From: Bacteroidota bacterium
GTDB lineage: Bacteria > Bacteroidota > Bacteroidia > Bacteroidales > Prolixibacteraceae
DNA: 64,000 bases
Assembly: GCA_024278975.1 (NCBI GenBank)
Contig: JAJRSD010000024.1
Coordinates: forward strand, 1-64,000
Reading direction: 5' to 3'
Each line of letters starts with the position of its first letter. Positions within the stretch are counted from its first letter, which is position 1. The notes below the pieces were generated by a model. It searched no databases and was not told where the DNA came from. It worked only from the letters and a program-made list of their open reading frames with translations. The position numbers and the translations under genes were made by a program. Positions 20,930 through 35,882 of this stretch are shown one piece after another.

Positions 20930-22084
20930 TCAATATTTATATTCCGTTAATGCTTCCCACATTGCCATTATATTTTCGGGCGGTACTTCAGCCTGAATAT
21001 TGTGAACAGTATTAAACACAAAACCACCACCCGGTGCCAGTGCGTCAATATTTCTTTTTACGTCATCTTTTATTTGCTGAATAGTTCCAGTTGGCAAAAC
21101 ATGCTGCGTGTCGATACCACCACCCCAAAAAGTAATAGAATCGCCAAAATCTTTTTTTAGCTGAACAGGTTCCATTCCGGTTGCAGTAATATGTACCGGA
21201 TTCAAAATATCAACCCCCATTTCTATTAAATCGGGAATTATGGGTCGTACATTTCCACACGAATGAAATATCAGTTTAGAATTCGGTGCTTTTTCTTTTA
21301 TAAAATTTAGTATCCTTACAAAATGCGGTTTGTAATATTCGCGAAATTGTTCGGGGCTGATTAGTTGAGATTGTTGAGTTCCATAGTCGTCGCCTTCGCC
21401 AACAATATCAACAACATCACCTATTTCGTCGAGTAGAGCATCCCAAAACTCAATCTTTAAATCGGCTAGTTTACCAACCAATTTATCAGAATTTACAGGA
21501 ATCATAAATGGGTCGAGCATGGCATTTTCCATTCCTCTAACACGTTGATGCATTTCAAACAACCCGGCACAAAAACCTTTTGTCATCACAATTTTATCCT
21601 GATTTCGGTATTGAATGGCTTTTTCGCGAAGTCCGGCAAACCGCATTTTATTTCGGGCATCGGGCCAGTTATAATCTTCAACAATACTGTTTTTTTCAAA
21701 ATCAATATTTTCCATGGGACTTTTTACCAGCGAAAACCAATATCCGTTTTTCGGAAAATGGTGCGTAAATCCCCACTCGTCGAAATATTCAAAATAATTG
21801 CCGCAATCTTTTAATTTTGAATAAACATCCCAATTATGGCTTGTAAGCGGAAAAATACCTCGTGTATCAACATTTAGTTTATTTAAAATATCGTCTGCCG
21901 GAGTAACAATTTGTTGAATTACATCGGACCAAACCGGTACGTCATTTCTAAAACCTAAATATTTTCGCAAATTCTGGTAGGCAGTATTTGTAATTCCTGT
22001 CCAGGTAATTCCTGCCAAATCATACGGAATTCTGTCGGGCTCTTCGTGGTTTAAAGTTTTTAAAATACGTTCTCTTGAGTTCAT
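20930..22084 (-). CDS. Uroporphyrinogen decarboxylase-family protein (MtaA/URO-D-like)
   Basis: A 384-residue cytoplasmic protein of the URO-D fold. The segment LIFHSCGNVRPIIPDLIEMGVD has the His-x-Cys zinc ligands of corrinoid methyltransferases (MtaA/MtbA type), while the classical haem-pathway residues are not evident. Relatives occur in sugar-catabolism clusters of Bacteroidota, often with Gfo/Idh/MocA enzymes, and may be demethylases or C-C lyases of unknown substrate. It ends the minus-strand pair with the MFS transporter (one-base gap), so both are cotranscribed and act on the same compound. It is not likely to be haem HemE. Confidence 0.78.
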   Translation of the reverse strand: MNSRERILKTLNHEEPDRIPYDLAGITWTGITNTAYQNLRKYLGFRNDVPVWSDVIQQIVTPADDILNKLNVDTRGIFPLTSHNWDVYSKLKDCGNYFEYFDEWGFTHHFPKNGYWFSLVKSPMENIDFEKNSIVEDYNWPDARNKMRFAGLREKAIQYRNQDKIVMTKGFCAGLFEMHQRVRGMENAMLDPFMIPVNSDKLVGKLADLKIEFWDALLDEIGDVVDIVGEGDDYGTQQSQLISPEQFREYYKPHFVRILNFIKEKAPNSKLIFHSCGNVRPIIPDLIEMGVDILNPVHITATGMEPVQLKKDFGDSITFWGGGIDTQHVLPTGTIQQIKDDVKRNIDALAPGGGFVFNTVHNIQAEVPPENIMAMWEALTEYKY

Positions 22085-22085
22085 A

Positions 22086-23363
22086 TTATAGTTTTATAGG
22101 TTTCATTTTTGGAACTAACAAATGAATAACTCCGATACCGATTAAGTAACCAAACGAAGCAACGGCAAATGCAATATTATAACCTTCGGAACCTGACTCG
22201 TTTAAAAGATATCCAACAAATAATGCCATTATCATACCGCCAATTGTGCTAACTGTTGTAGCAAAACCGGTTACAGTTGCCACTACCTGTTTTGGGAAAA
22301 GATCGGAAACTACTGTAAATATATTTGCCGACCACGAACAATGAGCAGCCGCAGCAAGGGCGATAAATGCTACACTTAAAAAAATTGATGAGTAGTAGGG
22401 AACCGTCATAACCGGCAAAACCAACAATGCAGAACCAAGCATCGTAATTTTTCTGGAAAAATTAACCGTTTTACCTTTTTTAATTAATCGCGAAGAGATT
22501 GCACCTCCAATTATTCCACCAAAATCGGCAACTACATAAATTGTTACCAGTGGCAAAGCCAACTCTTTTAAATCTATTCCAAATTTCGAATTCAGGAATT
22601 TTGCTCCCCAGTACAGATAAAACCACCACACCGGATCGGCAAAAAGTTTACCGAGAGCCACCGCCCAGGTTTGCCTGTATTTTAATAGTTTAATCCAGCT
22701 AATATTTATATTTTCAATTTCAGGTTCGCCATCTTCAATAAAATCAATTTCGGCTTGATTAACAAATTTGCTTTGCCTTGGTTTATTGTAAAAAATCAAC
22801 CAAAAAATCAACCAAAAAAAACCGAGCAACCCGGATAAAACAAAAACCCATCGCCACGAACCAAACTGAGCAATTATTAACGGTATAAGCAGCGGAGCCA
22901 TAATTGCTCCAACATTAGACCCACCGTTAAACAAACCCGTTGCAAATGCCCGCTCTTTTTTCGGAAACCACTCGGCAATAGTTTTTACAGCAGCCGGAAA
23001 ATTACCTGCCTCGCTCAAACCCAAACCAACCCGTGCCAGCGCAAAACCAACCCAGTTGCGGGCAGCAGCGTGTAACATGCTGGCAATACTCCACAAAGTT
23101 ACCGAGAGTGCAAAACCCCAGCGTGTTCCCAAACGATCGATTACATATCCTATTAACAGTGTTCCAATTGCGTAGGCAAACTGAAAAGATGCAACTATAT
23201 AACCGTACTGAATTTCTGTCCAGCCAATTTCGGTTTCTAACAGAGGGGCTAAAATTCCCATTAAAAACCTGTCGAAATAATTTACTGTTGTTGCAAAAAA
23301 CAGAAGACCGACAATTGCCCAGCGAAAATTAGTTTTTTTATTCTGAATTGTTTTTCCTGTCAT
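22086..23363 (-). CDS. MFS transporter, hexuronate/ACS-type anion:cation symporter
   Basis: A 425-residue protein with 12 predicted membrane helices. NYFDRFLMGILAPLL near the start, then ARVGLGLSEAGNFPAAVKTI and WFPKKERAFATGLFNGGSN are the signature of the ACS family members ExuT/GarP-type hexuronate and hexarate transporters. Transport is probably proton-coupled uptake of an acidic sugar. It is cotranscribed with the URO-D-like gene and lies 8 bases downstream of the GntR regulator, so all three may form one unit. It is the only importer in the catabolic region. Confidence 0.86.
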   Translation of the reverse strand: MTGKTIQNKKTNFRWAIVGLLFFATTVNYFDRFLMGILAPLLETEIGWTEIQYGYIVASFQFAYAIGTLLIGYVIDRLGTRWGFALSVTLWSIASMLHAAARNWVGFALARVGLGLSEAGNFPAAVKTIAEWFPKKERAFATGLFNGGSNVGAIMAPLLIPLIIAQFGSWRWVFVLSGLLGFFWLIFWLIFYNKPRQSKFVNQAEIDFIEDGEPEIENINISWIKLLKYRQTWAVALGKLFADPVWWFYLYWGAKFLNSKFGIDLKELALPLVTIYVVADFGGIIGGAISSRLIKKGKTVNFSRKITMLGSALLVLPVMTVPYYSSIFLSVAFIALAAAAHCSWSANIFTVVSDLFPKQVVATVTGFATTVSTIGGMIMALFVGYLLNESGSEGYNIAFAVASFGYLIGIGVIHLLVPKMKPIKL

Positions 23364-23371
23364 TTTTGAGT

Positions 23372-24361
23372 TTATAATGAGTTACGTTTTATAAATTCTA
23401 TGGGAATTACTTTTTGAACAGATCTACTATTTTTAATAAAGTCTGCCATTTCGTTTGCAATCTCTAAAAAGTTGCACGAGATAACAGATATTCCATCGCG
23501 AATGACTTGTTTGAGAGGAGTTTCGTTATATGAAATAACCCCAACATCTTTACCTAAAATCCAATTTTGTGATTTACACACATTTAAAAGTCGAATCAAA
23601 TCATTGTCATCGATAATCAGATAGGCTTCGTCTTTTTCTATTTCTACATCTTTTAATGAATTATAAATGCTATACGGAACACTAAACTCTTTACAGTATT
23701 TTATAAACCCCATTTTTAATGTCGGAGAATGGCCGCTTTTTTCAGGAAAGCTCAAATTAATTTTTTTATATTTCGAGATATTGCTGTTTGCCGAACAAAG
23801 TGCATTGTATGTTCCAGCAAAAAAATCCTGAATAACAGCATTGTAAATACTGTTTAAATAATCGTTTCGCGAAATAATTAATACTTTATGTGCCGGAATA
23901 CGACCAATAATATTTTTTATACGCGAGTTGTTAAACGATGATATTATAAAAAGGTCGTAATCGTTAACATTGCGATTAATAATAAGCTCAAGAACTTTAA
24001 TATTGTAGTGATGAAAATATATTTCAACTTCACAAAAACTATTAACTTTTTCTCGAAATTCATTGTAAAGAGTCTCCCAATATCCATCGAAACTATGTAC
24101 AATTATAACTACCCTCAATTTAATATTTGGTCTTTTACTAATAACCAAATATCCTATTTTGGGTCGAGATTCAATTACACCTTGCTTTTTAAGTTTATCG
24201 TAAGCTCTTACAACCGTTTTTCGGGCAACGCCAAATTTCAAGGCTGTTGCGTTAATGCTGGGAATTATATTTCCAATTTTAATATTTCCATCACGTACCG
24301 ATTCTGTTATAAATGCGACAATACGTTCTGATTTAGATATCGATTCCAGCTCCTGATTCAT
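23372..24361 (-). CDS. GntR-family transcriptional regulator with sugar-binding domain
   Basis: A 329-residue protein. Residues 1-75 form a GntR winged helix (ISKSERIVAFI, then GNIIPSINATALKFGVARKTVVRAYDKLKKQGVI). The rest has alternating helices and strands like a LacI-type periplasmic-binding fold rather than the usual FadR or UTRA domain; similar GntR-PBP hybrids control sugar use in Bacteroidota. It precedes and probably governs the MFS and URO-D-like genes. A perfect 18-bp palindrome lies 63 bases upstream of its start and is a candidate operator. Confidence 0.85.
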   Translation of the reverse strand: MNQELESISKSERIVAFITESVRDGNIKIGNIIPSINATALKFGVARKTVVRAYDKLKKQGVIESRPKIGYLVISKRPNIKLRVVIIVHSFDGYWETLYNEFREKVNSFCEVEIYFHHYNIKVLELIINRNVNDYDLFIISSFNNSRIKNIIGRIPAHKVLIISRNDYLNSIYNAVIQDFFAGTYNALCSANSNISKYKKINLSFPEKSGHSPTLKMGFIKYCKEFSVPYSIYNSLKDVEIEKDEAYLIIDDNDLIRLLNVCKSQNWILGKDVGVISYNETPLKQVIRDGISVISCNFLEIANEMADFIKNSRSVQKVIPIEFIKRNSL

Positions 24362-24423
24362 ATTTATAATTGGTTTATAATGAAATAAGGCTATGCTACA
24401 AAAATAAATCTGTGATACCTTAT

Positions 24424-24441
24424 ATTACTTTATAAAGTAAT
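24424..24441. promoter_or_regulatory. Perfect 18-bp palindrome, candidate GntR operator
   Basis: ATTACTTTATAAAGTAAT is an exact palindrome between the divergent gntR and E2-like genes, suited to a dimeric repressor. AT-rich sequence context raises the chance of a random palindrome, so the call is moderate. Confidence 0.45.
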
Positions 24442-24605
24442 GTAATAATGGACATTAAAGCAAGTGTAACAATCAATTTATATCTAATCCAAACAACAAT
24501 TATCTTATGAATAAAAGAAATCTCCTAAAAAAGTTACATTTGTCAGCACAAATTTATATTTCTAAATAAATAGAAATATTTTTTTATAATTTATAAGATA
24601 GTACA

Positions 24606-25415: not shown

Positions 25416-25488
25416 TTTCCACACATTATCATTGAACTTTAAAATCACTTTTTGCCCTCATTAACATTATATACGTTCTATAAATTTA

Positions 25489-25510
25489 TTTCCGTGTACG
25501 AACACGGAAA
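25489..25510. promoter_or_regulatory. LacI-type operator palindrome
   Basis: Arms TTTCCGTGT and ACACGGAAA separated by ACGA form a 22-bp inverted repeat with perfect 9-bp arms. It sits directly before a -7 box (25525) and about 78 bases before the lacI-type gene, where bound repressor would block the promoter. A LacI-family protein acting on this site is inferred. Confidence 0.6.
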
Positions 25511-25524
25511 ATGAAATTTTTCTA

Positions 25525-25532
25525 TATATTTG
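25525..25532 (+). promoter_or_regulatory. -7 promoter box of the lacI-type operon
   Basis: TATATTTG fits TAnnTTTG. The -33 region overlaps the operator palindrome at 25489-25510, so repression by occlusion is likely. Confidence 0.5.
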
Positions 25533-25587
25533 CATCTCATATTTTTCAACTAATTGCTTATATACTTATAATCAGAATATTATCGAA

Positions 25588-26642
25588 TTGAACAAACAAA
25601 TAACGATAAAAGATATTGCCGAGAAAGCCAAAGTTTCTATTGGAACAGTAGATCGTGTTCTTAACAACCGAAGCGAAGTAGCAGAATCTACCCGAAAAAA
25701 ATTCTTAGTATTATTGCAGAGTTCAATTTTAAACCAAATCTTTTTGCGAGCACACTTGCCTCTAAAAAAGCTGTAATGTTCGCAACTCTTATGCCCAAAC
25801 CACCATCGACAGAGGGTTATTGGAATAAACCATTTATTGGTGTCGAACGCCGTATTTCCGAACTTAATCAATATGGAGTTCAAATCCAACCCTTTACTTT
25901 TAATCAATTCAGCTCACAAAGTTTTGTAACCGAGTCGAAGAAGATAGTGGAACTCAGACCCGACGGAGTTGTTTTAACACCGTTTTTTAAAAAAGAGTCG
26001 CGAACTTTTATCGACCAATTAAACGAGCTTAAAATACCATTTGTATTTATTGATTCTGAAATTAAAGATGCCGGACAACTGAGTTATATAGGGCAAAACT
26101 CATATCAAAGTGGGTTGGTTTCAGGTAAATTACTCAATTTATTGCTGACAGAAGGGAATATTCTTGTAATTCATTTTGCCAAAGAGATGGACAATCAAAA
26201 CCATTTAGTTCAGCGCGAAAAAGGCTTTTACAATTGGTATAAAAATAACACAGATGAAAAACATCAAATTTATACTACTGAAGTTACTAACACCGACAAC
26301 GATAACTGGATGAAATCGGTTTTAGAAAAAATTAATAGGAAGAGTATTAAGGGAATTTTTGTTACCAACTCAAAGGTTTTTAATGTTGCACGATTAATTG
26401 AAAAATATAAAATACAAGGAATTAGTGTTATCGGGCACGACCTTTTAAAAGAAAATATTGAATTCCTCAAAAAAGATATTGTGCAATTTTTAATTTGTCA
26501 ACGCCCTGAAGAACAAGGATACAACGCAATAAATAAGTTATTTAGGTTTATTGTTCAAAAAAGAATAATTGCAACCGAAAATTATACATCGATAGATATT
26601 GTAACAAAAGAAAATGTAGATTATTACAAAGAATTTAAATAA
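25588..26642 (+). pseudogene. LacI-family transcriptional regulator, one-base frameshift
   Basis: Two overlapping frames, 25588-25776 and 25776-26642, form one LacI-type repressor. The first gives the helix-turn-helix (ITIKDIAEKAKVSIGTVDRVLNNRSEVAESTRKK), starting from a TTG. Restoring one A in the run of seven A near 25695-25701 gives a continuous ...AEFNFKPNLFASTLASKKAV... that joins the sugar-binding part (PKPPSTEGYW onward). The restored length is 351 residues, normal for the family. It precedes the SDR, kinase and LarA-like genes and presumably controls them. The lesion lies in a homopolymer, so a sequencing error is quite possible. Confidence 0.82.
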
Positions 26643-26651
26643 AAAATTATT

Positions 26652-27503
26652 ATGAAACCAACATCATTTGACGATTTAAAAGGAAAAGTTTGCGTAATTA
26701 CCGGAGGAGCCGGAGTACTTGGAAGTGCAATGGTAAAAGCCATTGCATCGGTGGGCACTAAAATTGCAATTGCCGATATTAACAAAGAAGTAGCAGATAA
26801 AGTTGCTGCTGAAATTGCTGCCGAATCGGGTGCAGAAGTTATTGGTGTAAAAGCCAATGTTTTAGACAAAGCCTCGCTGGAAACTGCAAAAGCAGAGATT
26901 AACGAGAAACTGGGCGAAATCGACATTCTAATTAACGGTGCAGGTGGAAACAGTCCGAAAGCTACTACCAGCGTAGAGCAAATGACAGAAGAAAACATTG
27001 ACAAACTGGAAGACACTTTCTACGGATTAGAGATGGAGGGATTCGACATGGTTTTCGCTCTGAATTTTAAGGGAACTTTACTGCCTACAATGGTATTTAC
27101 AAAAGATATGCTTAAAAACCGTAAAGGTGTGGTTATGAATATTTCTTCAATGAATTCGTACAAACCTCTAACAAAAATCCCGGCATATTCGGCAGCAAAA
27201 GCTTCTGTAAATAACTTCACCGAGTGGCTTGCCGTTCACCTTGCAAAAGTTGGAATTCGTGTTAATGCAATTGCTCCAGGTTTTTTTATTACCAATCAGA
27301 ATCGCTTTTTAGTGATGGATGAAAAAACAGGCAAATTCTCTCCACGTGGTCAGAAAATTGTAGACAACACACCAATGGGGAAATTTGGTGAACCCGAAGA
27401 TTTACAAGGAACAACACTCTTCTTAATATCCGATATTTCCAGTTTTGTTACCGGAATTGTTGTTCCGGTTGACGGAGGATATAGTGCATTTGGAGGAGTA
27501 TAG
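26652..27503 (+). CDS. SDR-family D-mannonate oxidoreductase (fructuronate reductase type)
   Basis: A 283-residue short-chain dehydrogenase. The NAD(P) site is TGGAGVLGSAM, NGAGGN marks the second motif, and the catalytic Ser, Tyr and Lys lie in NISSMNS and PAYSAAKAS. The C-terminal segment APGFFITNQNRFL and the ending VPVDGGYSAFGGV match the SDR group annotated as D-mannonate oxidoreductase, which interconverts D-fructuronate and D-mannonate. It starts 9 bases after the lacI-type gene and precedes a sugar kinase, so it belongs to an acidic-sugar pathway. The substrate is inferred from family resemblance. Confidence 0.82.
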   Translation: MKPTSFDDLKGKVCVITGGAGVLGSAMVKAIASVGTKIAIADINKEVADKVAAEIAAESGAEVIGVKANVLDKASLETAKAEINEKLGEIDILINGAGGNSPKATTSVEQMTEENIDKLEDTFYGLEMEGFDMVFALNFKGTLLPTMVFTKDMLKNRKGVVMNISSMNSYKPLTKIPAYSAAKASVNNFTEWLAVHLAKVGIRVNAIAPGFFITNQNRFLVMDEKTGKFSPRGQKIVDNTPMGKFGEPEDLQGTTLFLISDISSFVTGIVVPVDGGYSAFGGV

Positions 27504-27592
27504 AAATTGAGAATTGAGAAATCAAACCTCACTAAACCAGAAGGGGTTAGTATATTTTTCTAAAATATTACAAAATTATAGAATATATTAAA

Positions 27593-28672
27593 ATGAGTAT
27601 CGAGTTAAAAAAAGATTGTAAATATTCGATGCTGGTAGCAACCAGTATGGGAATTAGAATAACACCCGATAACGGGCAGCCGGTTCATGCCAGCGATAAA
27701 TTTACAATGTATGCAACCAGTGCCGAAACAAACGTGGCAAGCATTCCATCGTTTCTTGGATTACCAACAAAAGTACTTACAACTTTTGTAAAAGGCAGTC
27801 CGATTGCACAATTCATAAAAAGTAATTTGAAGAGCCGCCACATGAATTACGAAGGTCCCGAACTGGAGCAGGAAAATCCTTGGGGATTTCGTCATCAGAT
27901 AAATATTGCTGATAGCGGTTACGGTTCGCGCGGACCTCGTGTTTTTAACGACCGTGCCGGAGAAGTCGGGCGAACTTTAAATGCAAAAGATTTCGATTTA
28001 GAACGGATTTTTGGAGATGAAGGCGTTCAGATTGTTCACCTTTCGGGGTTAATTGCAGCACTTTCTCCTGAAACAACTCAGTTTTGTCTTGCCGTGGCAA
28101 GAGCAGCAAAAAAATATGGCACACGAATTTCATTCGATTTAAATCACCGTGCATCGTTTTGGAAAGGACGCGAAGAACAACTTCGTAAAGATTTTACTGA
28201 AATCGCTTCGGTTTCAGATATATTGATCGGAAACGAGGAGGACTTTCAACTCTGTTTTGGAATTGAAGGACCGGAAGCCGGAGGTTCGGGACTGAACGCT
28301 AAAATAGAAGGATTTAAAGGATTGATAAATCGTGTAAAAGATGCCTTCCCAAATGCATCGGTTTTTGCAACCACACTTCGCGAAGTGGTAAATGTAAACG
28401 AACATTTATGGGGAGCAATTATGCTGGAAGGCGAAAACTGGCACGTTGTAGAACCTCGTTCAATAAGAGTACTCGACCGCATTGGCGGTGGCGACGGTTT
28501 TGTGGGCGGAATGTTATACGGAATCCTAAAAAACTGGGATGCCGAAAAATGGCCGCAATTTGGCTGGGCAACCGGTGCAATGGCAACAACATTTTTAACA
28601 GACTACGCACAACCGGCAGACGAAGAACAAGTTTGGAGTATTTGGGGTGGAAACGCAAGAGTAAAGAGATAG
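27593..28672 (+). CDS. PfkB-family sugar kinase (KdgK-like)
   Basis: A 359-residue ribokinase-type enzyme. The C-terminal signature DRIGGGDGFVGG carries the catalytic Asp, and ISFDLNHRASFWKGRE matches the substrate/ATP region of 2-keto-3-deoxygluconate kinases. Its closest known role is KDG to KDPG in hexuronate breakdown, but family members also phosphorylate gluconate, fructose or other sugars. It is 90 bases after the SDR gene and 101 bases before the LarA-like gene. No mannonate dehydratase gene is present in this window to supply KDG, so the substrate is uncertain. Confidence 0.82.
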   Translation: MSIELKKDCKYSMLVATSMGIRITPDNGQPVHASDKFTMYATSAETNVASIPSFLGLPTKVLTTFVKGSPIAQFIKSNLKSRHMNYEGPELEQENPWGFRHQINIADSGYGSRGPRVFNDRAGEVGRTLNAKDFDLERIFGDEGVQIVHLSGLIAALSPETTQFCLAVARAAKKYGTRISFDLNHRASFWKGREEQLRKDFTEIASVSDILIGNEEDFQLCFGIEGPEAGGSGLNAKIEGFKGLINRVKDAFPNASVFATTLREVVNVNEHLWGAIMLEGENWHVVEPRSIRVLDRIGGGDGFVGGMLYGILKNWDAEKWPQFGWATGAMATTFLTDYAQPADEEQVWSIWGGNARVKR

Positions 28673-28713
28673 CTCAATAAATAATCTTTCGCATAGACTT
28701 TTATCTGAGCAAC

Positions 28714-28739
28714 TGACCCCCGGCCGTGTGTCGGGGATC
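28714..28739. terminator. GC-rich hairpin between kinase and LarA-like genes
   Basis: Arms GACCCCCGG and CGGGGATC (with one mismatch) around a short loop, followed by TTTATAA. It may be an attenuator reducing transcription into the LarA-like gene, or a palindromic repeat. There is no long T tract. Confidence 0.4.
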
Positions 28740-28773
28740 TTTATAAAACATCACTCAAATTAAAATATCAACA

Positions 28774-30060
28774 ATGATTTACTACGAAAACGGTTCAACT
28801 AAAACCAGCCTTTCTGCAGATGACTTAAAACGAGGTATGTTTAAAGCATTAAAAAATATTGGCACAAAGAAAAAAGTTCTCGCAATCCCACCAGACTACA
28901 CACGACTTCCATCACGTGCCGGTGTATTAACGGAGTACTGCTGGCAATATTTTGGCGATAAACTCACCGATATTTTGCCTGCATTGGGGACGCACACTCC
29001 AATGACTGACGAACAAATTAGTCACATGTTTGGAAAAACTCCTCGCAGTCTGTTTCGCGACCACGATTGGCGCAACGATGTAATTACACTTGGAACTGTT
29101 CCTTCGGAATTTGTAAAAGAGGTTTCCGATGGAGCCGTGGACTACACGTGGCCGGCACAGGTAAACAAGCTTTTAGTTGAAGGAAACTTTGACCTTATTC
29201 TTTCCATTGGGCAAGTTGTACCGCACGAAGTTGTGGGAATGGCAAACTACAATAAAAATGTTTTTGTGGGAACAGGTGGTGCCGAAGGAATTAACAAAAG
29301 TCATTTTATTGGTGCTGCCTACGGAATGGAAAAAATGATGGGACATGCAGATACACCGGTTCGTAAAATATTTAATTACGCTTCCGAAAATTTCTCAAAT
29401 CATCTGCCAATTGTTTATGTACAAACCGTTGTTGGACTAAATAAAAAAGGAGAATTACAAACCTACGGATTGTTTATTGGCGACGACTATTCTGTTTTCG
29501 ATAAAGCAGCAAAACTTTCGCTTCAGGTAAATTTCGAGATGGTGGATGAGCCCATAAAAAAAGCAGTTGTCTGGCTCGACCCAACCGAATTTAAAAGTAC
29601 GTGGCTGGGTAATAAAAGTGTTTATCGTACACGAATGGCTCTTGCCGATGGCGGTGAGTTGATTGTTCTGGCTCCGGCTCTAAAAGAGTTTGGCGAAGAT
29701 AAAGAGATTGATAAACTCATTAGAAAATACGGCTATTTCGGCACACCACACACTCTAAAACTTGTTGAAGAGAATGAAGATTTAAGAAATAATTTGAGTG
29801 CAGCCGCCCACCTTATTCACGGCTCTTCCGAAGGACGTTTCAGTATAACTTATTGTCCGGGAAAAGAACCTGAAAATCTCACAAAAGAGGAGATTGAAAG
29901 CGTTGGGTTTAAATATGCCGATTACGATGAGGTAACTGCAAAATACAATCCCCAAAAATTAAAAGAGGGTAAAAATATTATGCCCGATGGAGAAGAAGTA
30001 TTTTATATTTCAAATCCTGCACTGGGGTTGTGGGCTTTTAAAGAAAGATTTAAATTTTAG
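28774..30060 (+). CDS. LarA-superfamily nickel-dependent hydroxyacid racemase/epimerase
   Basis: A 428-residue protein homologous to lactate racemase LarA. PDYTRLPSRAG and LGTHTPM give the N-terminal active-site Arg and His74. The key residues have LarA spacing: His151 in VPHEVVG, Lys161 ten residues later (the Lys that carries the nickel-pincer cofactor in LarA), and His177 (nickel ligand) 26 after His151. The superfamily includes lactate and malate racemases and D-gluconate 2-epimerases. Given the mannonate-type SDR, sugar kinase and gnd nearby, an aldonate C2 epimerase is the most likely role. Genes for cofactor assembly (larB, larC, larE) are not in this window. Confidence 0.82.
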   Translation: MIYYENGSTKTSLSADDLKRGMFKALKNIGTKKKVLAIPPDYTRLPSRAGVLTEYCWQYFGDKLTDILPALGTHTPMTDEQISHMFGKTPRSLFRDHDWRNDVITLGTVPSEFVKEVSDGAVDYTWPAQVNKLLVEGNFDLILSIGQVVPHEVVGMANYNKNVFVGTGGAEGINKSHFIGAAYGMEKMMGHADTPVRKIFNYASENFSNHLPIVYVQTVVGLNKKGELQTYGLFIGDDYSVFDKAAKLSLQVNFEMVDEPIKKAVVWLDPTEFKSTWLGNKSVYRTRMALADGGELIVLAPALKEFGEDKEIDKLIRKYGYFGTPHTLKLVEENEDLRNNLSAAAHLIHGSSEGRFSITYCPGKEPENLTKEEIESVGFKYADYDEVTAKYNPQKLKEGKNIMPDGEEVFYISNPALGLWAFKERFKF

Positions 30061-30061
30061 T

Positions 30062-30100
30062 TTACAGTTGCAGTTTGCAGTTTGCAGAAAAGAAAGTAGC
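30062..30100. repeat. Short GCAGTTT-type tract
   Basis: ACAGTTGCAGTTTGCAG and its continuation: a 7-bp-period run before the Gfo/Idh/MocA start, akin to the units at 41363 and 56257. An ORF start at the TTG at 30075 lies inside it; the real start is the ATG at 30102. Confidence 0.5.
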
Positions 30101-30101
30101 A

Positions 30102-31097
30102 ATGAAAAAAAACAACACAATAAATTGGGGAATAATAGGAGTTGGCGATGTTACCGAAGTAAAAAGCGGACCGGCATTTTATAAAATTAAAGGTTCGCAA
30201 TTAGTTGCAGTAATGCGTCGTAATGCTGAAAAAGCAGCAGATTATGCAAAGCGGCACAATGTAAAAAAATGGTATTCAGATGGTACTGAGTTGATAAATA
30301 ACCCGGAAGTAGATGCCGTTTATATTGCTACCCCACCCGACTCGCACGCCCGTTATGCAATTGAAGTGATGCGGGCAGGAAAACCGGTTTATGTTGAAAA
30401 ACCAATGGCACGAAATTATGCCGAATGTCAGGAGATGCTTCAAGTTTCGGAGGAGACCGGAATGCCGATTTGGGTTGCCTACTACCGACGCACGCTACCT
30501 GCTTTTTTAAAAGCGAAAGAGTTAATTGAATCCGGTGCAATTGGAAAACCGCTGATGGTAAACATCAAACTTTACCAACTAGCCACCGAAAAAAATCAGA
30601 CAAAAGAGGAGATGCACTGGCACGTTTTTCCGGAAATTAGCGGAGCAGGTCATTTTTACGATTTGGCTTCTCATCAATTCGATTATTTGGATTTTATTTT
30701 CGGTGAAGTTATTGAAGTGAAAGGGAACGCTAAAAATTTAGCCGGTTTATATCCTGCCGAAGACACCGTTTCGGGAACATGGATTCATAAATCGGGAGTA
30801 GTTGGTACAGGAAGCTGGTGTTTTGTAGTTGATAAAAACTCGGAAGAAGACGAAATAGAAATTATTGGCGATAGCGGTAAAATTACACTCCCCTGTTTCT
30901 CCCCCGCCGGAGTTTTAACTTTGAAAACTGCCCGCGGAACCGAAGAGATGAATTTTGCTAATCCTGAGCATATTTCACAAAATCTCGTTCAACAGATTGT
31001 AACTGAATTAAGAGGAACAGGAAAATGTGTAAGCACTGGTATTTCGGCCGCGCGTACGAGTTGGGTTTTGGATGAAATGGTTAAAGGGTTTTATTGA
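30102..31097 (+). CDS. Gfo/Idh/MocA-family oxidoreductase
   Basis: About 331 residues from the ATG at 30102, after a repeat tract that rules out the longer TTG start. The N-terminal Rossmann segment INWGIIGVGDVTEVKSGP and the catalytic EKPMARN motif (Lys) are typical. YYRRTLPAFLKAKELIESGAIG and the GAGHFYDLASHQFDYLDFIFG block mark the C-terminal alpha/beta domain. It probably oxidises or reduces a sugar or sugar acid with NAD(P). It lies 41 bases after the LarA-like gene, so it is likely in the same operon. Confidence 0.85.
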   Translation: MKKNNTINWGIIGVGDVTEVKSGPAFYKIKGSQLVAVMRRNAEKAADYAKRHNVKKWYSDGTELINNPEVDAVYIATPPDSHARYAIEVMRAGKPVYVEKPMARNYAECQEMLQVSEETGMPIWVAYYRRTLPAFLKAKELIESGAIGKPLMVNIKLYQLATEKNQTKEEMHWHVFPEISGAGHFYDLASHQFDYLDFIFGEVIEVKGNAKNLAGLYPAEDTVSGTWIHKSGVVGTGSWCFVVDKNSEEDEIEIIGDSGKITLPCFSPAGVLTLKTARGTEEMNFANPEHISQNLVQQIVTELRGTGKCVSTGISAARTSWVLDEMVKGFY

Positions 31098-31340
31098 TGG
31101 TGATTGATGGTGATTTAATAGTGATTCGTAGAAAAACAATAAATCTCAACAAATCTCGATGAATAATAATAAATAATGGAAATATAATTGACGGTAATTA
31201 GTGGTGATTTAATAGTGATTGATGGTGATTTTCAAAAAATAACAACGAATAACAATGAATCACAATGAGTCACTATGAATCACAACAAATCACTATGAAT
31301 AACAATAAGTCACAATGAATAACAATAAGTCACAATCTTT
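31095..31340. repeat. Degenerate 10-bp tandem repeat array
   Basis: Units such as GGTGATTGAT on the left and AACAATGAAT/CACAATGAGT/CACTATGAAT on the right, phased at 10 bp for at least ten units from 31241 on. It is the same family as 10161-10287, in opposite orientation: CACAATGAGTCACTATGAAT occurs here and, on the minus strand, there. It fills the gap between the oxidoreductase and pdxB. Confidence 0.75.
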
Positions 31341-31362
31341 TTCAAAGAACAACATTCTAAAA

Positions 31363-32490
31363 ATGAAGATAATAACAGACAATAAAATACCATACATAAA
31401 AGGAGCTTTGGAATCTTTTGCCGAAGTTGTTTACCTACCCGGAAATCAGACAACTGCCGAGGTTGTAAAAGATGCTGATGCTTTAATAACGCGTACACGT
31501 ACAAAATGTACACGGGAAATTCTGGAAGGTTCATCGGTTAAGTTTATAGCCACGGCAACAATCGGCTTCGATCACATTGACACTGAATATTGCAAGCAAG
31601 CTGGTATTAAATGGACAAATGCACCAGGTTGTAATGCCGAAAGTGTAAATCAATATATTACTTCTGCACTATTTTCATGGTCGATGAAAAACAGAACCGA
31701 CCTGAAAGATAAAACCATCGGGATAGTGGGCGTTGGCAACGTAGGTTCACGTGTTGCAAAAACCTGTAAAATACTCGGAATGAATGTTCTTTTAAACGAC
31801 CCACCACGAGAAAGAACAGAGGGCAACGATAAATTTGTATCGTTAAAAGCCATTCAGGAAAAAGCCGATATTATTACGTTCCATGTTCCGTTAAATCGTG
31901 GTGGCAAAGACTCAACTTATCATTTGGTTGATAAAGAATTTCTTCTCAACCTGAATAAAAAACCACTGGTAATTAATTCGTGCCGGGGCGAAGTTTTCGA
32001 TACAAAAGCGGTAATCAGTGCAGTTGATAATTACCTGATTTCAGGGTTAATAATCGACTGTTGGGAAAACGAACCGAATATAGATTTGAATCTTTTAAAT
32101 AAAGTTGATTTCGGAACACCGCACATTGCGGGCTATTCGAAAGACGGAAAAGCAAATGGTACAAAAATGAGTGTGCGGGCAGTTAGTCGGTTTTTTAATC
32201 TCGGAATCGACAACTGGAAACCGGAACATATTGAAATGCCTGAGAATACAACAATTGAAATTGATGGCAACCAACGGCGTGAATATTCAATTCTGGCCGA
32301 GGCAGTTTTATCAACTTATAATATTGAAAACGATTTTGATGCACTAAAAGATTCGCCTGAATTATTTGAAAAACTAAGGGGAGATTATCCGGTGAGACGA
32401 GAATTTGACACTTTTACTATTCATGCGAAAAATATTGAAGAGAAAACTTTGGATAAATTGAAAGCATTGGAATTTAGTATTTCAAAGTAA
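31363..32490 (+). CDS. pdxB: 4-phosphoerythronate dehydrogenase PdxB
   Basis: About 375 residues from the ATG at 31363, after the repeat array; an upstream in-frame start at 31315 lies inside the repeat and is rejected. MKIITDNKIPYIKGALESF and DALITRTRTKC match PdxB; the NAD-binding GIVGVGNVGSRVA, NSCRGEVFD and the final GTPHIAGYSKDGKANGT block are typical of 2-hydroxyacid dehydrogenases, and the C-terminal domain is PdxB-specific. It oxidises 4-phosphoerythronate to 2-oxo-3-hydroxy-4-phosphobutanoate in DXP-dependent vitamin B6 synthesis. It is followed by the GIY-YIG unit and gnd. Confidence 0.9.
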   Translation: MKIITDNKIPYIKGALESFAEVVYLPGNQTTAEVVKDADALITRTRTKCTREILEGSSVKFIATATIGFDHIDTEYCKQAGIKWTNAPGCNAESVNQYITSALFSWSMKNRTDLKDKTIGIVGVGNVGSRVAKTCKILGMNVLLNDPPRERTEGNDKFVSLKAIQEKADIITFHVPLNRGGKDSTYHLVDKEFLLNLNKKPLVINSCRGEVFDTKAVISAVDNYLISGLIIDCWENEPNIDLNLLNKVDFGTPHIAGYSKDGKANGTKMSVRAVSRFFNLGIDNWKPEHIEMPENTTIEIDGNQRREYSILAEAVLSTYNIENDFDALKDSPELFEKLRGDYPVRREFDTFTIHAKNIEEKTLDKLKALEFSISK

Positions 32491-32514
32491 TTGTCATTCC
32501 TGCGAAAGCGGGAA
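32491..32514. repeat. Left inverted repeat of the GIY-YIG unit
   Basis: A 24-bp palindrome-containing sequence starting TTGTCATTCC and ending GCGGGAA. It is inverted to 32828-32851, matching at 22 of 24 positions. It begins at the pdxB stop codon. Confidence 0.8.
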
Positions 32515-32532
32515 ACTTACAAATAAAGCATT

Positions 32533-32883
32533 ATGCGCAATTTTGACTTTTACATTTACATACTTACAAACAAATGGAATAAAGTTCTTTACATTGGCGT
32601 GACAAACAATTTAAAAAGAAGAATAGAAGAACATAAGAACAAATTAAATAAGGGTTTTGCATCGAAATATAATATCGACAAATTGGTTTATTTTGAACAT
32701 TTCAAATATATAAACGATGCAATTAAAAGAGAGAAAAGATTAAAAAAGTGGAAAAGAGATTGGAAAGATGTATTAATAAACAAAGTAAATCCTAAATGGA
32801 GGAATTTATCAGAAGATTTGAGTGAGATTCCCACTTTCGCGGGAATGACAATTCTTGATTCTAAAATCATAATAAAAAATAGA
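32533..32883 (+). CDS. GIY-YIG endonuclease-like ORF without its own stop codon
   Basis: A 117-codon ORF reading in frame into gnd. The nuclease domain is clear: YIYILTNKWNKVLYIGVTNN (GIY-YIG variant YIY-YIG), RRIEEHK, GFASKYN, KLVYFE and a REKRLKKWKRDWK region. The tail (about residues 98-117, EIPTFAGMTI) is the translation of the right inverted repeat and spacer. Such small GIY-YIG proteins are widespread and commonly tied to palindromic repeats. The unit is bounded by inverted repeats at 32491-32514 and 32828-32851, suggesting a mobile insertion. Without a stop before gnd it would be read as an N-terminal fusion unless gnd uses its own ATG at 32884. Confidence 0.75.
32828..32851. repeat. 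Right inverted repeat of the GIY-YIG unit
   Basis: Begins TTCCCACTTTCGC and ends TGACAA; it is the inverted partner of 32491-32514. It is translated as part of the GIY-YIG ORF (EIPTFAGMT), a peptide seen often where this repeat family is mis-read as coding. Confidence 0.8.
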
Positions 32884-34337
32884 ATGAAAAAATTAGCAGA
32901 CATTGGATTGATTGGGTTGGCCGTAATGGGCGAAAACCTGGTATTAAACATGGAAAGTAAAGGGTTTACAGTTGGTGTTTTTAACCGTACTGTTGCCAAA
33001 GTTGACAATTTTATTGCAGGTCGCGGAGCAGGTAAAAACTTCATTGGAGCACACTCTATCGAAGAACTTTGTGCATCGTTGGAGCGCCCGCGAAAAGTGA
33101 TGATGTTGGTAAAAGCCGGACAACCGGTCGACGATTTTATCGAGTTGATAATGCCTCACCTGGAACCGGGAGATATTATTATCGATGGTGGAAACTCGCA
33201 TTTCCCCGATACTATCCGCAGAACAAAATATGTTGAAAGCAAAGGCTTTTTGTACATCGGAACAGGTGTTTCGGGTGGCGAAGAAGGTGCTTTATTAGGG
33301 CCTTCAATTATGCCCGGTGGTTCTCCTGAAGCGTGGCCTGCCGTAAAAGACATTTTTCAGGCAATTTCAGCAAAAGTTGAAAACGGAGTTTCTTGTTGCG
33401 ATTGGGTTGGCGAAGGCGGTGCCGGACATTTTGTAAAAATGGTACACAACGGAATTGAGTATGGCGACATGCAAATTATTACCGAAGCATACCAGATTAT
33501 GAAAGAGTTACTGGGAATGAGCAACGACGAAATGCACAAAGTATTTGCCGAATGGAATAATGGAATTTTAGATAGTTATCTTATTGAAATTACCCGCGAT
33601 ATTTTAGGTTATAAAGACGAAAACGGAGAGGAGACTGTTGAAATGATTCTCGATACTGCCGGTCAAAAAGGAACCGGTAAATGGACAGGCATTTCGGCAC
33701 TCGACCTTGGAATTCCGCTGACTTTAATTGGCGAGTCGGTTTTTGCCCGTTGTTTATCAGCACAAAAAGATTTGCGTGTTAAAGCATCGAAAGTAATTAA
33801 CGGACCAAAACCGGAATTTAAAGGCGACAAAAAAGCCTTTATAAATGATATTATGAATGCGCTTCTCGGAGCTAAAATAATTTCGTATGCACAAGGTTAT
33901 AATCTGATGATGGAAGCTGCAAATGAGTACGGCTGGAATCTTAATTACGGCGGCATAGCTTTAATGTGGCGCGGTGGTTGTATTATCCGCTCGGTATTTC
34001 TGGGCGATATTAAAAGGCATTCGATAATAATCCTGAGTTACCTAACTTGCTACTCGACCCATTCTTTAAACAAAAAGTTGAAGAGGCGCAGGCAGGCTGG
34101 AGAAATGTTTGTGCAACTGCACTCACAAACGGAGTTCCTGTTCCGGCTTTAACATCGGCACTTTGTTATTTCGATGGTTTCCGCAGCGAGCGTTTACCTG
34201 CCAACTTGTTGCAAGCACAGCGCGACTATTTTGGCGCACACACTTACGAAAGAGTTGACAAACCACGTGGGGAGTTTTTCCATACAAACTGGACTGGTCG
34301 TGGCGGAGATACTGCGTCTTCTACTTATGTAGTGTAA
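32884..34337 (+). pseudogene. gnd: 6-phosphogluconate dehydrogenase, one-base frameshift near the C-terminus
   Basis: Starting at the ATG at 32884 the protein reads IGLIGLAVMGENLVLNMESKG, has the NADP-site VFNRT, the substrate loop GTGVSGGEEGALLGPSIMPGG and HFVKMVHNGIEYGDMQ, all typical of Gnd. After GDIK the frame is lost; adding one A to the run at 34012-34015 gives [20 protein letters not shown], which joins the second frame (34047-34337) with [27 protein letters not shown] and ends in SSTYVV. The restored protein is 484 residues, normal for the family. The gene lies downstream of the LarA-like gene. Gnd makes ribulose 5-phosphate and NADPH. The lesion is in a homopolymer, so sequence error is likely. 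Confidence 0.9.
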
Positions 34338-34343
34338 ATTTTT

Positions 34344-34409
34344 CGTCATTCCGAACTTGTTTCGGAATCTGCATCATTAAAAAGATGCTGAAATAAATTC
34401 AGCATGACG
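34344..34409. repeat. Dispersed palindromic repeat (CGTCATTCCGAA family)
   Basis: A 66-bp unit with a left half containing CGTCATTCCGAA and TTCGGAAT arms, and a right half with TGCTGAA and TTCAGCA arms, closed by CGTCA (34344) and TGACG (34409). It is a foldable, three-hairpin unit with copies at 16326-16387 and half a copy at 41711-41738. Confidence 0.75.
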
Positions 34410-34444
34410 GTAAAATCATTCATATACAAAAGTTAAATTATTAA

Positions 34445-34487
34445 AGAACCGTTCTCTCTATAATAGAGAGAACGGTTCTCTTTTTTA
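34445..34487 (+). terminator. gnd: Strong rho-independent terminator after gnd
   Basis: A perfect 15-bp stem, AGAACCGTTCTCTCT with its complement, a TAAT-type loop, then CTTTTTT. It ends the catabolic operon from gnd. Confidence 0.9.
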
Positions 34488-34555
34488 TGGAAATATAGCC
34501 GCCTATACGCGAACAAAAAGGCTGAAAACTTATTCGTGCATTCGTGGCTATCTTG

Positions 34556-35593
34556 TTACAAATTTATCATCGCCTTAATTGCACCATCTTTATAACCTTC
34601 AACAATATCAAAAGCATCGGCTGTTTCTTCCAAAGTGAAATTATGGGTTACCATTTTTTCAACATCTATTTTACCCGAAACTACCAAGTCAATTGCTTCC
34701 TGAACGCAATGATTTTGCCTGCGTATATTAACTACCGAAAGCTCTTTTCGGCGCATTAAATCCATATTGAATGTATATTGAGCCGATGGTGGAATTCCGA
34801 TTAAAACCAACTTCCCACCGGGTTTTAAAATTTTAAGAGCATTTGTAACAGCATCCTGCTCGCCACTGGCTTCGAAAACCACATCAAGCAAATTCTCCTC
34901 GTTCTGTTTTACAACCTCCTCAACGTCTTCCTTATCAGAATTTATGGAATATGCAGCACCAATTTCTTTTGCTTTCTCCAAACGATAATCAAGAGGTTCT
35001 ATCATTCCAATATTTTCAATCCCTTCGGCCAATAGTTTCATTAAAACACTTAGCCCGATTGGCCCGGCACCAAAAATCCCAACCGATGCAGATTTGTTTT
35101 CAATATGAGCCATATTAACTGTATAAACTCCAATAGACAGTGGTTCTATTAATGCTGCTTGTGCCGGGTTTAGCTTTCCGGTTACCGGGAAACAGGTAAA
35201 ATCGGGCATCACAATATATTCCGATAAGCAACCATCTAATTGTCCCGGACAACCCAAAAATTTACCATTGCGGCAAGTGTGTGGTCGTCCGGCAAGACAC
35301 TGGTCGCAAACTCCACAATGCACAGCGGGATCGACAACAACCAGATCGCCAACTTTTATATTTGTTACTTTCTCCCCTATTTCTTCAATTATCCCTGAAC
35401 ATTCGTGCCCAACCGGAAACGGATATTCAACAACTTGTGTCCCGATTTTGCCCACAGAATAATAGTGAATATCGGAGCCACAAACTCCAATGGTAGCAAG
35501 TTTAATTTTAACATCACTTGCATTTATTAATAACGGAACTGTAACTTTTGTCATTTCCATTTCCCTTATTCCCGAGAGTACAACCTGTTTCAT
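34556..35593 (-). CDS. Zn-dependent polyol/alcohol dehydrogenase (sorbitol dehydrogenase-like)
   Basis: A 345-residue medium-chain dehydrogenase. Catalytic zinc ligands are in GVCGSDIHYY and GHECSG, the structural zinc cluster is CGVCDQCLAGRPHTC, and the NAD site is GAGPIGLSVL. LKPGGKLVLIG is also typical. It resembles sorbitol/L-iditol and threonine dehydrogenases. It faces the gnd operon convergently. The substrate is unknown, but the location near sugar-acid genes suggests oxidation of a polyol or aldonate. Confidence 0.85.
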   Translation of the reverse strand: MKQVVLSGIREMEMTKVTVPLLINASDVKIKLATIGVCGSDIHYYSVGKIGTQVVEYPFPVGHECSGIIEEIGEKVTNIKVGDLVVVDPAVHCGVCDQCLAGRPHTCRNGKFLGCPGQLDGCLSEYIVMPDFTCFPVTGKLNPAQAALIEPLSIGVYTVNMAHIENKSASVGIFGAGPIGLSVLMKLLAEGIENIGMIEPLDYRLEKAKEIGAAYSINSDKEDVEEVVKQNEENLLDVVFEASGEQDAVTNALKILKPGGKLVLIGIPPSAQYTFNMDLMRRKELSVVNIRRQNHCVQEAIDLVVSGKIDVEKMVTHNFTLEETADAFDIVEGYKDGAIKAMINL

Positions 35594-35882
35594 TATATTA
35601 TTTTTTTAATTCACTCTAAAATTAAAATAATCTTTAATGAAATCAATCCTGTACAATCTGTTATTTCAAAATAGTAACAAAAGAGTATTCTATGCCAATA
35701 ATTTACAATCTGCTTGTTTTGACTATTTGAATCATAAATTCGAATAAATTATAAACATTTTACACAACATATTTATGTTTATTAAAAACTATCTATCAAA
35801 CACTTATAAGTATTCGACTTTAGGCATTTAACAAAAATTAATATTTTTTTAAAAATCTTTAACCATTAGTAACATTTTGTAG

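What the first reader, a model, noticed from the sequence alone, without database searches (positions are those of the whole stretch)
26652..34337. Possible new route: fructuronate to mannonate to gluconate to pentose phosphate
The SDR is a mannonate oxidoreductase type. D-mannonate and D-gluconate are C2 epimers, and the LarA superfamily includes D-gluconate 2-epimerases. A PfkB kinase could phosphorylate gluconate and 6-phosphogluconate dehydrogenase would take it to ribulose 5-phosphate. No mannonate dehydratase is in this window. This would join uronate use to the pentose phosphate path with a nickel enzyme, bypassing KDG.
Basis: inference. Interest (0 to 1): 0.78.

Follow-up and report, generated by a model that had tools for sequence, protein, structure and literature searches.

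The report
Nickel-epimerase hexuronate-to-pentose-phosphate gene cluster
A Bacteroidota genome carries a conserved gene cluster that most likely turns sugar acids into pentose phosphates through a nickel-dependent epimerase; the route was already proposed in other bacteria, but the kinase and epimerase types seen here are untested and look like a new variant.

Summary
The named genes are present: a D-mannonate oxidoreductase-type SDR, a PfkB kinase, a LarA-family protein and gnd, with Gfo/Idh and PdxB genes between. The genome has no mannonate dehydratase (UxuA) match and no gluconokinase over cut-off. It has UxaC, UxaE (frameshifted), a separate KdgK and KdgA, LarB/C/E with NikR, and one gnd, in this cluster. 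Of 393 genomes of the order, 58 have this LarA, 43 this PfkB and 41 both; 28 of the 41 lack full-length UxuA. Where PfkB is missing, 12 of 17 loci carry a PFK-family kinase in its slot. One relative has an eight-gene tight operon SDR-PFK-HAD-LarA-PdxB-gnd-uxaC-uxaE. The route is not new: proposed for Thermotoga in 2012, epimerase activity shown in 2020, a kinase-first version shown in Lactobacillus suebicus extracts. New here: an untested LarA group (18), two unrelated candidate hexonate kinases, UxuA-less genomes. The window's gnd and LacI-type regulator each have a one-base homopolymer frameshift, probably assembly error. Epimerase-first or kinase-first is open; one PfkB-gnd pair without LarA favours epimerase-first.

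The parts
20930..22084 (-). URO-D-family protein, last gene of a divergent GntR-MFS-UROD set; role unknown
   Evidence: PF01208 93.5 bits; a relative is found near the cluster in 3 of 80 loci
22086..23363 (-). MFS transporter nearest to the D-galactonate transporter family, below cut-off; likely sugar-acid uptake (inference)
   Evidence: TIGR00893 263.5 bits, cut-off 395
23372..24361 (-). GntR-type regulator
   Evidence: PF00392 39.3 bits, cut-off 27
25588..26642 (+). LacI-type regulator of the cluster, broken by a one-base deletion in an A run: helix-turn-helix and sugar-binding parts (25776-26642) are in different frames; start codon uncertain
   Evidence: PF13407 118.4 bits; HTH in another frame; same frame in 57 of 60 loci with room (window included), other frame only in the window, no HTH found in 2
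26652..27503 (+). SDR, D-mannonate oxidoreductase (fructuronate reductase) type
   Evidence: NF006132 384.7 bits, cut-off 281; upstream of LarA in 62 of 62 relatives with room
27593..28672 (+). PfkB-family kinase, inferred gluconate (or mannonate) 6-kinase
28774..30060 (+). LarA-family group 18 protein, predicted nickel-pincer D-mannonate/D-gluconate 2-epimerase
   Evidence: NF052594 665.6 bits, cut-off 500; catalytic residues kept; best fold match 4NAR, T. maritima GntE2
30102..31097 (+). Gfo/Idh/MocA dehydrogenase, optional member of the cluster; role unknown
   Evidence: PF01408 94.6 bits; downstream of LarA in 49 of 65 relatives with room
31363..32490 (+). PdxB-type 4-phosphoerythronate dehydrogenase, conserved neighbour; role in the route unexplained
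   Evidence: NF001309 466.3 bits, cut-off 434; within 4.5 kb downstream of LarA in 55 of 57 and 12 of 14 loci
32489..32853 (+). GIY-YIG element between two inverted 32-base arms (32489-32520 and 32822-32853), inserted before gnd; not part of the pathway
   Evidence: PF01541 62.4 bits; inverted repeat 88%; relative found in 5 of 80 loci
32884..34337 (+). gnd, decarboxylating 6-phosphogluconate dehydrogenase, with a one-base frameshift near 34011-34017; the only gnd found in the genome
34445..34479 (+). terminator-like hairpin after gnd (16 pairs, then T run)
   Evidence: 12 such sites found in 24300-35700 against a mean of 9.9 in shuffles, so only suggestive

Best explanation
The cluster is a hexuronate catabolic operon that feeds the pentose phosphate pathway instead of KDG. 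UxaC and UxaE, encoded elsewhere in this genome, turn galacturonate or glucuronate into fructuronate; the SDR reduces fructuronate to D-mannonate; the group-18 LarA protein, loaded with the nickel-pincer nucleotide made by LarB/C/E, inverts C2 to give D-gluconate; the PfkB kinase phosphorylates C6 to give 6-phosphogluconate; Gnd decarboxylates it to ribulose 5-phosphate. Shown by sequence: the gene set, its conservation, the absence of a UxuA match, the catalytic residues and the cofactor genes. Inferred: all substrates, the epimerase-before-kinase order, and co-transcription. In related genomes another gene pair (PFK-family plus HAD) seems to take the PfkB step, and some relatives keep UxuA as a second exit from mannonate. 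My confidence that mannonate goes to 6-phosphogluconate through this LarA and kinase, in either order, is about 0.83.
For: No UxuA match in the genome. UxaC, canonical KdgK and KdgA on contig C75, with UxaE in two frames. NikR, LarE, LarC, LarB in a row on C65, each over its cut-off. P-loop gluconokinase 0 matches; none of 6 FGGY proteins reaches the gluconokinase cut-off. gnd matched only in the window; zwf is on C6 with no gnd in the 3.9 kb seen there. LarA18 and PfkB co-occur: 41 genomes with both, 17 LarA only, 2 PfkB only, 333 neither, of 393; 28 of the 41 lack full-length UxuA (26 if the weak partial matches in G176 and G007 are accepted), so PfkB follows LarA rather than UxuA. Operons: L150 SDR-PFK-HAD-LarA-PdxB-gnd-UxaC-UxaE with gaps of -13 to +37 bases; L021 Gfo-PdxB-gnd gaps of -4 and 13; L036 SDR-PfkB-gnd-LarA gaps of 12, 19 and 38. 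L156: PfkB 8 bases before gnd in a genome (G148) without any NF052594 match, which favours gluconate as the kinase substrate. LarA residues equal to those described for GntE2 and the E-V-A-H pattern given for GntEs.
Against: No enzyme of this cluster has been assayed. LarA group 18 is not among the groups tested in PMC7583248. The PfkB's nearest solved relatives are KDG kinases. The genome does hold KdgK and KdgA, so a KDG route from another source exists, and UxaA (altronate dehydratase) was not searched for. Among the FGGY kinases one scores 241.7 bits to the gluconokinase model (cut-off 648.55), so a gluconokinase elsewhere is not excluded. 18 of 67 relatives with room carry UxuA within the cluster, and LarA18 and UxuA are if anything weakly positively associated (18 of 58 against 60 of 335), so the bypass is not always exclusive. 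Two LarA18 clusters show no kinase (L139, L148). The window's gnd and regulator and the genome's UxaE are frameshifted. PMC7583248 itself warns that gene context did not predict activity in several cases. The PfkB-gnd pair without LarA rests on one genome (G148, listed completeness 93).
Confidence: 0.58

Rival explanations
1. Kinase first: the PfkB is a mannonate kinase making 6-phosphomannonate, and the group-18 LarA is the 6-phosphomannonate 2-epimerase giving 6-phosphogluconate for Gnd. This is the L. suebicus scheme, whose genes were not identified in that paper.
For: Both activities were shown in L. suebicus extracts, where mannonate alone gave no gluconate (PMC6978723). Free-mannonate KM values of enzymes called GntE are high, 9.4 to 120 mM. 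The gene set fits equally well.
Against: Tested GntE enzymes do act on free mannonate. PfkB and gnd occur 8 bases apart without a group-18 LarA in G148, where a mannonate kinase would make no substrate for Gnd.
Confidence: 0.25
2. Ordinary KDG kinase: the PfkB phosphorylates KDG and the neighbours LarA and gnd serve something else.
For: Best solved relatives are KDG kinases (2afb, E 1.3e-29; Foldseek TM 0.82); UxuA is inside 18 of 67 relatives' clusters.
Against: NCBIfam KDG-kinase cut-offs missed by far, though the genome's canonical KdgK also misses them, with higher scores; that KdgK stands beside UxaC and KdgA; 28 of 41 genomes with LarA18 and PfkB lack full UxuA; 66 columns are at least 90% conserved in each group but different, among them S43, A44 and N119 (89 of 89 cluster kinases) against G, G and Y (23 of 23 KdgK); PfkB lies directly beside gnd in L036 and L156.
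Confidence: 0.08
3. A different C2 pair: the SDR and LarA act on another hexonate pair (for example altronate/allonate or a glucarate-type acid), and gnd is only a hitchhiker.
For: Group 18 is called only 'hexonate' by its describers; the Gfo/Idh and PdxB genes are unexplained.
Against: Of such pairs only mannonate/gluconate leads to the substrate of Gnd, and gnd is downstream of LarA18 in 46 of 47 loci with room and just upstream in the 47th, in tight operons, in L150 together with UxaC and UxaE.
Confidence: 0.06
4. In this strain the route is decaying: gnd, the LacI-type regulator and uxaE are pseudogenes. (This can be true together with any of the readings above.)
For: Three indel-type breaks in genes of the route.
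Against: The two window breaks sit in A runs and the uxaE break near a T run, typical of sequencing or assembly error; SDR, PfkB, LarA, Gfo and PdxB are intact; a genome of the same genus has an intact 484-aa gnd (L158).
Confidence: 0.12

Closest known systems
Thermotoga maritima GntE route (UxaE, fructuronate reductase, GntE, GntK, Gnd)
   Same: Same chemistry and logic: mannonate to gluconate by a LarA-family enzyme, then a kinase and Gnd; UxaE upstream. The window LarA's best sequence and fold match in the PDB is GntE2, 4NAR.
   Different: LarA is group 18, not 20; the kinase is PfkB (or a PFK-family gene with HAD in other Bacteroidales) where the Thermotoga proposal names a gluconate kinase GntK; PdxB and Gfo are added; Bacteroidota instead of Thermotogota.
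Lactobacillus suebicus mannonate kinase / 6-phosphomannonate 2-epimerase route
   Same: Joins the galacturonate isomerase route to 6-phosphogluconate, bypassing KDG.
   Different: Kinase acts first there and the genes were unidentified; here the genes are known and the order is not.
Canonical UxuA-KdgK-KdgA (KDG) route
   Same: Shares UxaC, UxaE and the mannonate oxidoreductase; KdgK and KdgA are also present in this genome.
   Different: No mannonate dehydratase match in the genome; mannonate is proposed to leave by the LarA-kinase-Gnd branch.
LarA superfamily group 18 (NCBIfam NF052594)
   Same: 665.6 bits, over the cut-off of 500; catalytic residues and GntE-like substrate residues kept.
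   Different: The family is named 'putative'; group 18 is not among the groups assayed in PMC7583248.

Membership tests
LarA superfamily, group 18 putative hexonate epimerase (NF052594) | Profile score over curated cut-off | tested here: met
   665.6 bits, cut-off 500
LarA superfamily, group 18 putative hexonate epimerase (NF052594) | NPN-binding and catalytic residues equivalent to LarA D72, R75, H108, H174, K184, H200, K298 | tested here: met
   D41, R44, H74, H151, K161, H177, K281 invariant in 21 aligned sequences including the LarA paralogue; equivalence read from the alignment to 4NAR and the paper
D-gluconate 2-epimerase (GntE) | E, V, A, H at the positions of LarA F175, F176, W358, T359 | tested here: met
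   E152, V153, A345, H346; the last two placements rest on my alignment, and PMC7583248 names N348 of GntE2 for W358, which aligns to about N340 here
D-gluconate 2-epimerase (GntE) | NPN biosynthesis genes larB, larC, larE in the genome | tested here: met
   All over cut-off on C65
D-gluconate 2-epimerase (GntE) | Epimerisation of D-mannonate and D-gluconate | not testable with these tools
   needs an assay
D-mannonate oxidoreductase, SDR type (NF006132) | Profile score over cut-off | tested here: met
   384.7 bits, cut-off 281
KDG kinase (KdgK) | Profile score over any KDG-kinase cut-off | tested here: not met
   NF041332 88.2 (cut-off 440), NF040938 38.9 (400), NF052444 28.5 (400); the genome's canonical KdgK also misses the first two (217.8, 121.1), so this test alone is weak
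KDG kinase (KdgK) | G-G at positions 43-44 and Y at 119 as in all 23 KdgK compared | tested here: not met
   S43, A44, N119 in 89 of 89 cluster kinases
PfkB (ribokinase) fold | PF00294 match and ribokinase-type fold | tested here: met
   61.3 bits, cut-off 25.8; Foldseek 2afb TM 0.82, model pLDDT 87.1
6-phosphogluconate dehydrogenase, decarboxylating (TIGR00873) | Profile score over cut-off | tested here: met
   594.5 bits, cut-off 426.7, from the first 373 positions
6-phosphogluconate dehydrogenase, decarboxylating (TIGR00873) | Intact full-length reading frame | tested here: not met
   one-base frameshift near 34011-34017
Thermotoga-type mannonate-gluconate-6PG route | Reductase, LarA-family epimerase, kinase and gnd in one locus | tested here: met
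   whether gnd lies in the Thermotoga locus itself is recalled, not seen in a call
Thermotoga-type mannonate-gluconate-6PG route | Recognised gluconokinase (FGGY or P-loop) in the genome | tested here: not met
   no FGGY over the gluconokinase cut-off, TIGR01313 0 matches, controls ring in 5 of 14
Canonical uronate-KDG route | Mannonate dehydratase UxuA | tested here: not met
   0 matches in the genome, controls ring in 5 of 14
Canonical uronate-KDG route | Altronate branch (UxaA/UxaB) | not tested

The most novel reading that the evidence does not exclude
Bacteroidales have evolved, at least twice, a new hexonate kinase for this route: a PfkB-family enzyme and, in the same operon slot elsewhere, a PPi-PFK-like enzyme with a HAD partner. 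[quoted passage not shown]
Probability: 0.5. Interest if true: 0.72.

Novelty: new variant of a known kind. Interest (0 to 1): 0.58.

Why it matters
It gives a conserved gene set for a KDG bypass that is redox-neutral down to ribulose 5-phosphate (as argued for L. suebicus in the abstract of PMC6978723), proposes a substrate for an uncharacterised nickel-enzyme group, and names two kinase families for which my searches of the held library listed no report of action on gluconate or mannonate (listings only, and the PFK family was not searched). [quoted passage not shown] For annotation it warns that absence of uxuA does not mean absence of uronate use.

Tried and rejected
Considered and rejected: (1) PfkB as the KDG kinase of a hidden KDG route: a canonical KdgK exists elsewhere, UxuA is absent, and conserved positions differ. 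(2) gnd as a chance neighbour: rejected by operon packing and conservation. (3) A fused GIY-YIG-Gnd protein, as the ORF 32533-34152 suggests: a GIY-YIG relative is found in only 5 of 80 loci, and it lies between inverted arms here. (4) A programmed frameshift in the LacI-type regulator: 57 of 60 loci have it in one frame, 2 show no HTH, and only the window differs. (5) The PFK/HAD pair as KDG enzymes: 0 of the 17 loci fetched have UxuA nearby, but 5 of the 17 LarA-without-PfkB genomes do have UxuA elsewhere, so this is not fully excluded.

Led nowhere: the 2012 Thermotoga paper is not held, so it is cited only as described by others; the HAD protein has no close solved relative; promoter scan no better than shuffles (32 against 33.6); second structural aligner not available. 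Not followed: UxaA/UxaB and Kdu genes in the genome, Table S1 of PMC7583248 (no supplement look-ups allowed), whether PdxB neighbours gnd in genomes without LarA18.

Rows dropped or choices made before counts: three weak partial UxuA matches (G176, G199, G007) were treated as absent; two of them lie in the LarA18-plus-PfkB set (28 or 26 of 41 without UxuA). LarA18 counts take 56 genomes over cut-off plus two strong fragments (G262, G154), while G003, G360 and G382 with weak matches were not counted. One of 17 LarA18-without-PfkB genomes (G370) was not fetched; L155 is a second, divergent LarA18-like copy in G294. L017 and L019 come from one strain and were both counted. PfkB presence means a match at E up to 1e-60.

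Full report
What is in the window. The cluster runs on the + strand: LacI-type regulator, SDR (26652-27503), PfkB kinase (27593-28672), LarA-family protein (28774-30060), Gfo/Idh dehydrogenase (ATG at 30102 to 31097), PdxB (31363-32490), a GIY-YIG element, and gnd (32884-34337). On the other strand lie GntR, an MFS transporter nearest to the galactonate family (below cut-off) and a URO-D-like gene. The SDR scores 384.7 bits as D-mannonate oxidoreductase (cut-off 281), and the LarA 665.6 bits as 'nickel-dependent putative hexonate epimerase', NPN group 18 (cut-off 500). By its nearest relatives the organism looks like a Prolixibacteraceae member near Draconibacterium (inference).

Breaks in this assembly. 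gnd is in two frames: one base is missing near 34011-34017 against 12 of 12 relatives compared. The LacI-type regulator has its helix-turn-helix in another frame, with a run of seven A at the break; 57 of 60 loci with room have it in one frame, 2 show no helix-turn-helix, and the window alone differs. UxaE on contig C75 is also split; its second part matches PF16257, its first part resembles the start of UxaE in L033 by eye. The breaks lie in or near homopolymers, so I read them as probable sequencing or assembly error; decay is not excluded. A genome of the same genus has an intact 484-aa gnd in the same cluster (L158).

UxuA: no match, while 5 of 14 control genomes ring. UxaC: present. LarC, LarE and LarB: present in a row behind a NikR gene. 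KdgA and a canonical KdgK: present near UxaC. P-loop gluconokinase: no match, controls ring in 5 of 14. FGGY kinases: six, namely glycerol kinase, rhamnulokinase and ribulokinase over cut-off and three best matched by xylulokinase but below its cut-off; none reaches the gluconokinase cut-off. gnd: matched only in the window. zwf: on contig C6, with no gnd in the 3.9 kb seen there. There is a second, distant LarA paralogue on C83.

Conservation of the cluster. Among the best 80 of 291 relatives of the LarA, counting only loci with enough flanking DNA: SDR upstream 62 of 62, PfkB 67 of 67, UxuA 18 of 67, Gfo downstream 49 of 65, PdxB 55 of 57, gnd downstream 46 of 47, gnd upstream 3 of 67 (the one locus without gnd downstream, L036, has it upstream). 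In an even draw of 393 genomes of the order, 56 have the LarA over cut-off, 81 have some UxuA match and 43 have the PfkB at E up to 1e-60. Counting two strong LarA fragments as present, LarA and PfkB occur together in 41, LarA alone in 17, PfkB alone in 2 (Fisher p 2e-39, not corrected for kinship); 28 of the 41 lack a full-length UxuA, or 26 if the weak partial matches in G176 and G007 are accepted. LarA and UxuA are only weakly associated (18 of 58 against 60 of 335, p 0.03).

Kinase replacement. I fetched the neighbourhoods of 16 of the 17 genomes with LarA18 but no PfkB, plus the second copy in G294. Of these 17 loci, 12 have the PFK-family gene and 14 the HAD-type gene; gnd is downstream in 13 of 14 with room. 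One PFK examined scores 365.2 bits as PPi-dependent phosphofructokinase, subfamily cut-off 273, and its nearest solved relatives are called PPi-dependent phosphofructokinases. The HAD protein is weakly matched by PF13419 in the two examined. L139 and L148 have neither; L151 begins inside the HAD gene; L154 has HAD with an SDR fragment close upstream and no PFK between; L155 has none of the cluster genes. L150 is the clearest operon: SDR, PFK, HAD, LarA, PdxB, gnd, UxaC, UxaE with gaps from -13 to 37 bases; its genome (G311) is not among those with a UxuA match.

Residues and folds. In 21 aligned LarA sequences, D41, R44, H74, H151, K161, H177 and K281 are invariant; they stand where the published catalytic and NPN-binding residues stand. 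After H151 come E and V, and the AAAH segment fits the E, V, A, H pattern given for GntEs, with the caveat that PMC7583248 places GntE2 N348 at one of these positions. AlphaFold2 gave pLDDT 93.3; the best PDB match is 4NAR, the T. maritima GntE2, E 1.7e-30, TM 0.79. The PfkB model (pLDDT 87.1) is closest to KDG kinase 2afb, TM 0.82. Across 89 cluster kinases and 23 KdgK, 66 columns are at least 90% conserved in each group but different, among them S43, A44 and N119 against G, G and Y; others such as N184, R186 and D301 are shared. That the Gly pair and the Tyr sit at the KDG site of KDG kinases is recalled, not tested here.

Order of the two middle steps. Enzymes called GntE act on free mannonate but with high KM (9.4 to 120 mM). 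In L. suebicus extracts mannonate was first phosphorylated (read: abstract, passages and section 9 of PMC6978723). In the order survey G148 has PfkB and gnd 8 bases apart and no match at all to the LarA18 profile; a mannonate kinase would be useless there, so this points to gluconate as the kinase substrate. It is one genome with listed completeness 93, and its PfkB is 59% identical to the window's. The other PfkB genome without LarA18, G307, is listed as 72% complete and its contig ends nearby, so it says little. I therefore keep epimerase-first as more likely, not as shown.

Comparison with what is known. Rodionova et al. 2012 proposed the mannonate-gluconate branch in Thermotoga (seen only as described in PMC6978723, PMC7583248 and PMC7953866). 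Desguin et al. 2020 (PMC7583248: abstract, Results in full, passages of the Discussion and Methods) measured GntE1 and GntE2 and hypothesised that group 18 epimerises a hexonate. Urdiain-Arraiza et al. 2024 (PMC11770544: abstract, passages, section 6) added further GntEs; the terms 'group 18' and 'bacteroid' do not occur in its main text. Searches of the held open-access library: 'mannonate kinase' 1 paper, 'gluconate kinase' with 'PfkB' 11, 'GntE' with 'mannonate' 4, '6-phosphomannonate' with 'epimerase' 1, 'lactate racemase' with 'fructuronate' 2, 'gluconokinase' with 'PfkB family' 2, 'nickel-pincer' with 'Bacteroid' and 'mannonate' 0. Apart from the four papers named above (PMC7953866: passages only) I saw only these listings; no title or abstract start in them describes this Bacteroidales cluster or a PfkB hexonate kinase. 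Subscription papers are mostly not held.

Verdict. What is new is the variant: an untested LarA group, two kinase families not found reported for this substrate, and genomes without a mannonate dehydratase.

Noticed in passing
window 32489-32853: GIY-YIG gene between 32-base inverted arms inserted just before gnd and open in frame into it; relatives in 5 of 80 loci (L004, L010, L017, L019 and, in part, L083). It looks like a dispersed element.
   Followed up: partly
window 31363-32490 and relatives: PdxB-type 4-phosphoerythronate dehydrogenase is kept next to LarA18 and gnd in 55 of 57 and 12 of 14 loci with room. Its link to this route is unexplained; a PdxJ gene lies beside UxaC in L140.
   Followed up: partly
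L146 9428-11756, L150 6182-8379: PFK-family kinase plus HAD protein pair occupying the PfkB slot in other Bacteroidales; a possible hexonate kinase with a phosphatase or repair partner.
   Followed up: partly
window 25588-26642 and 34011-34017; L092 4323-5569: Three indel-type breaks in or near homopolymers in one genome (regulator, gnd, uxaE).
   Followed up: partly
L094 6542-7777 (own genome C83): Second LarA paralogue, 248.6 bits to the malate racemase family (cut-off 500), beside an MFS-like gene and, from its start, an amidohydrolase-like gene (by eye).
   Followed up: no
L092 8418-9314 (own genome C75): Mrr-type restriction endonuclease gene sitting between kdgK and kdgA.
   Followed up: no
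L158 11793-13193; L016 6039-7439 and L026 7424-8815 by likeness of their starts: A second Gfo/Idh gene of about 465 aa with a twin-arginine-like start after the SDR in some relatives (for L158, for the others), absent in the window.
   Followed up: no
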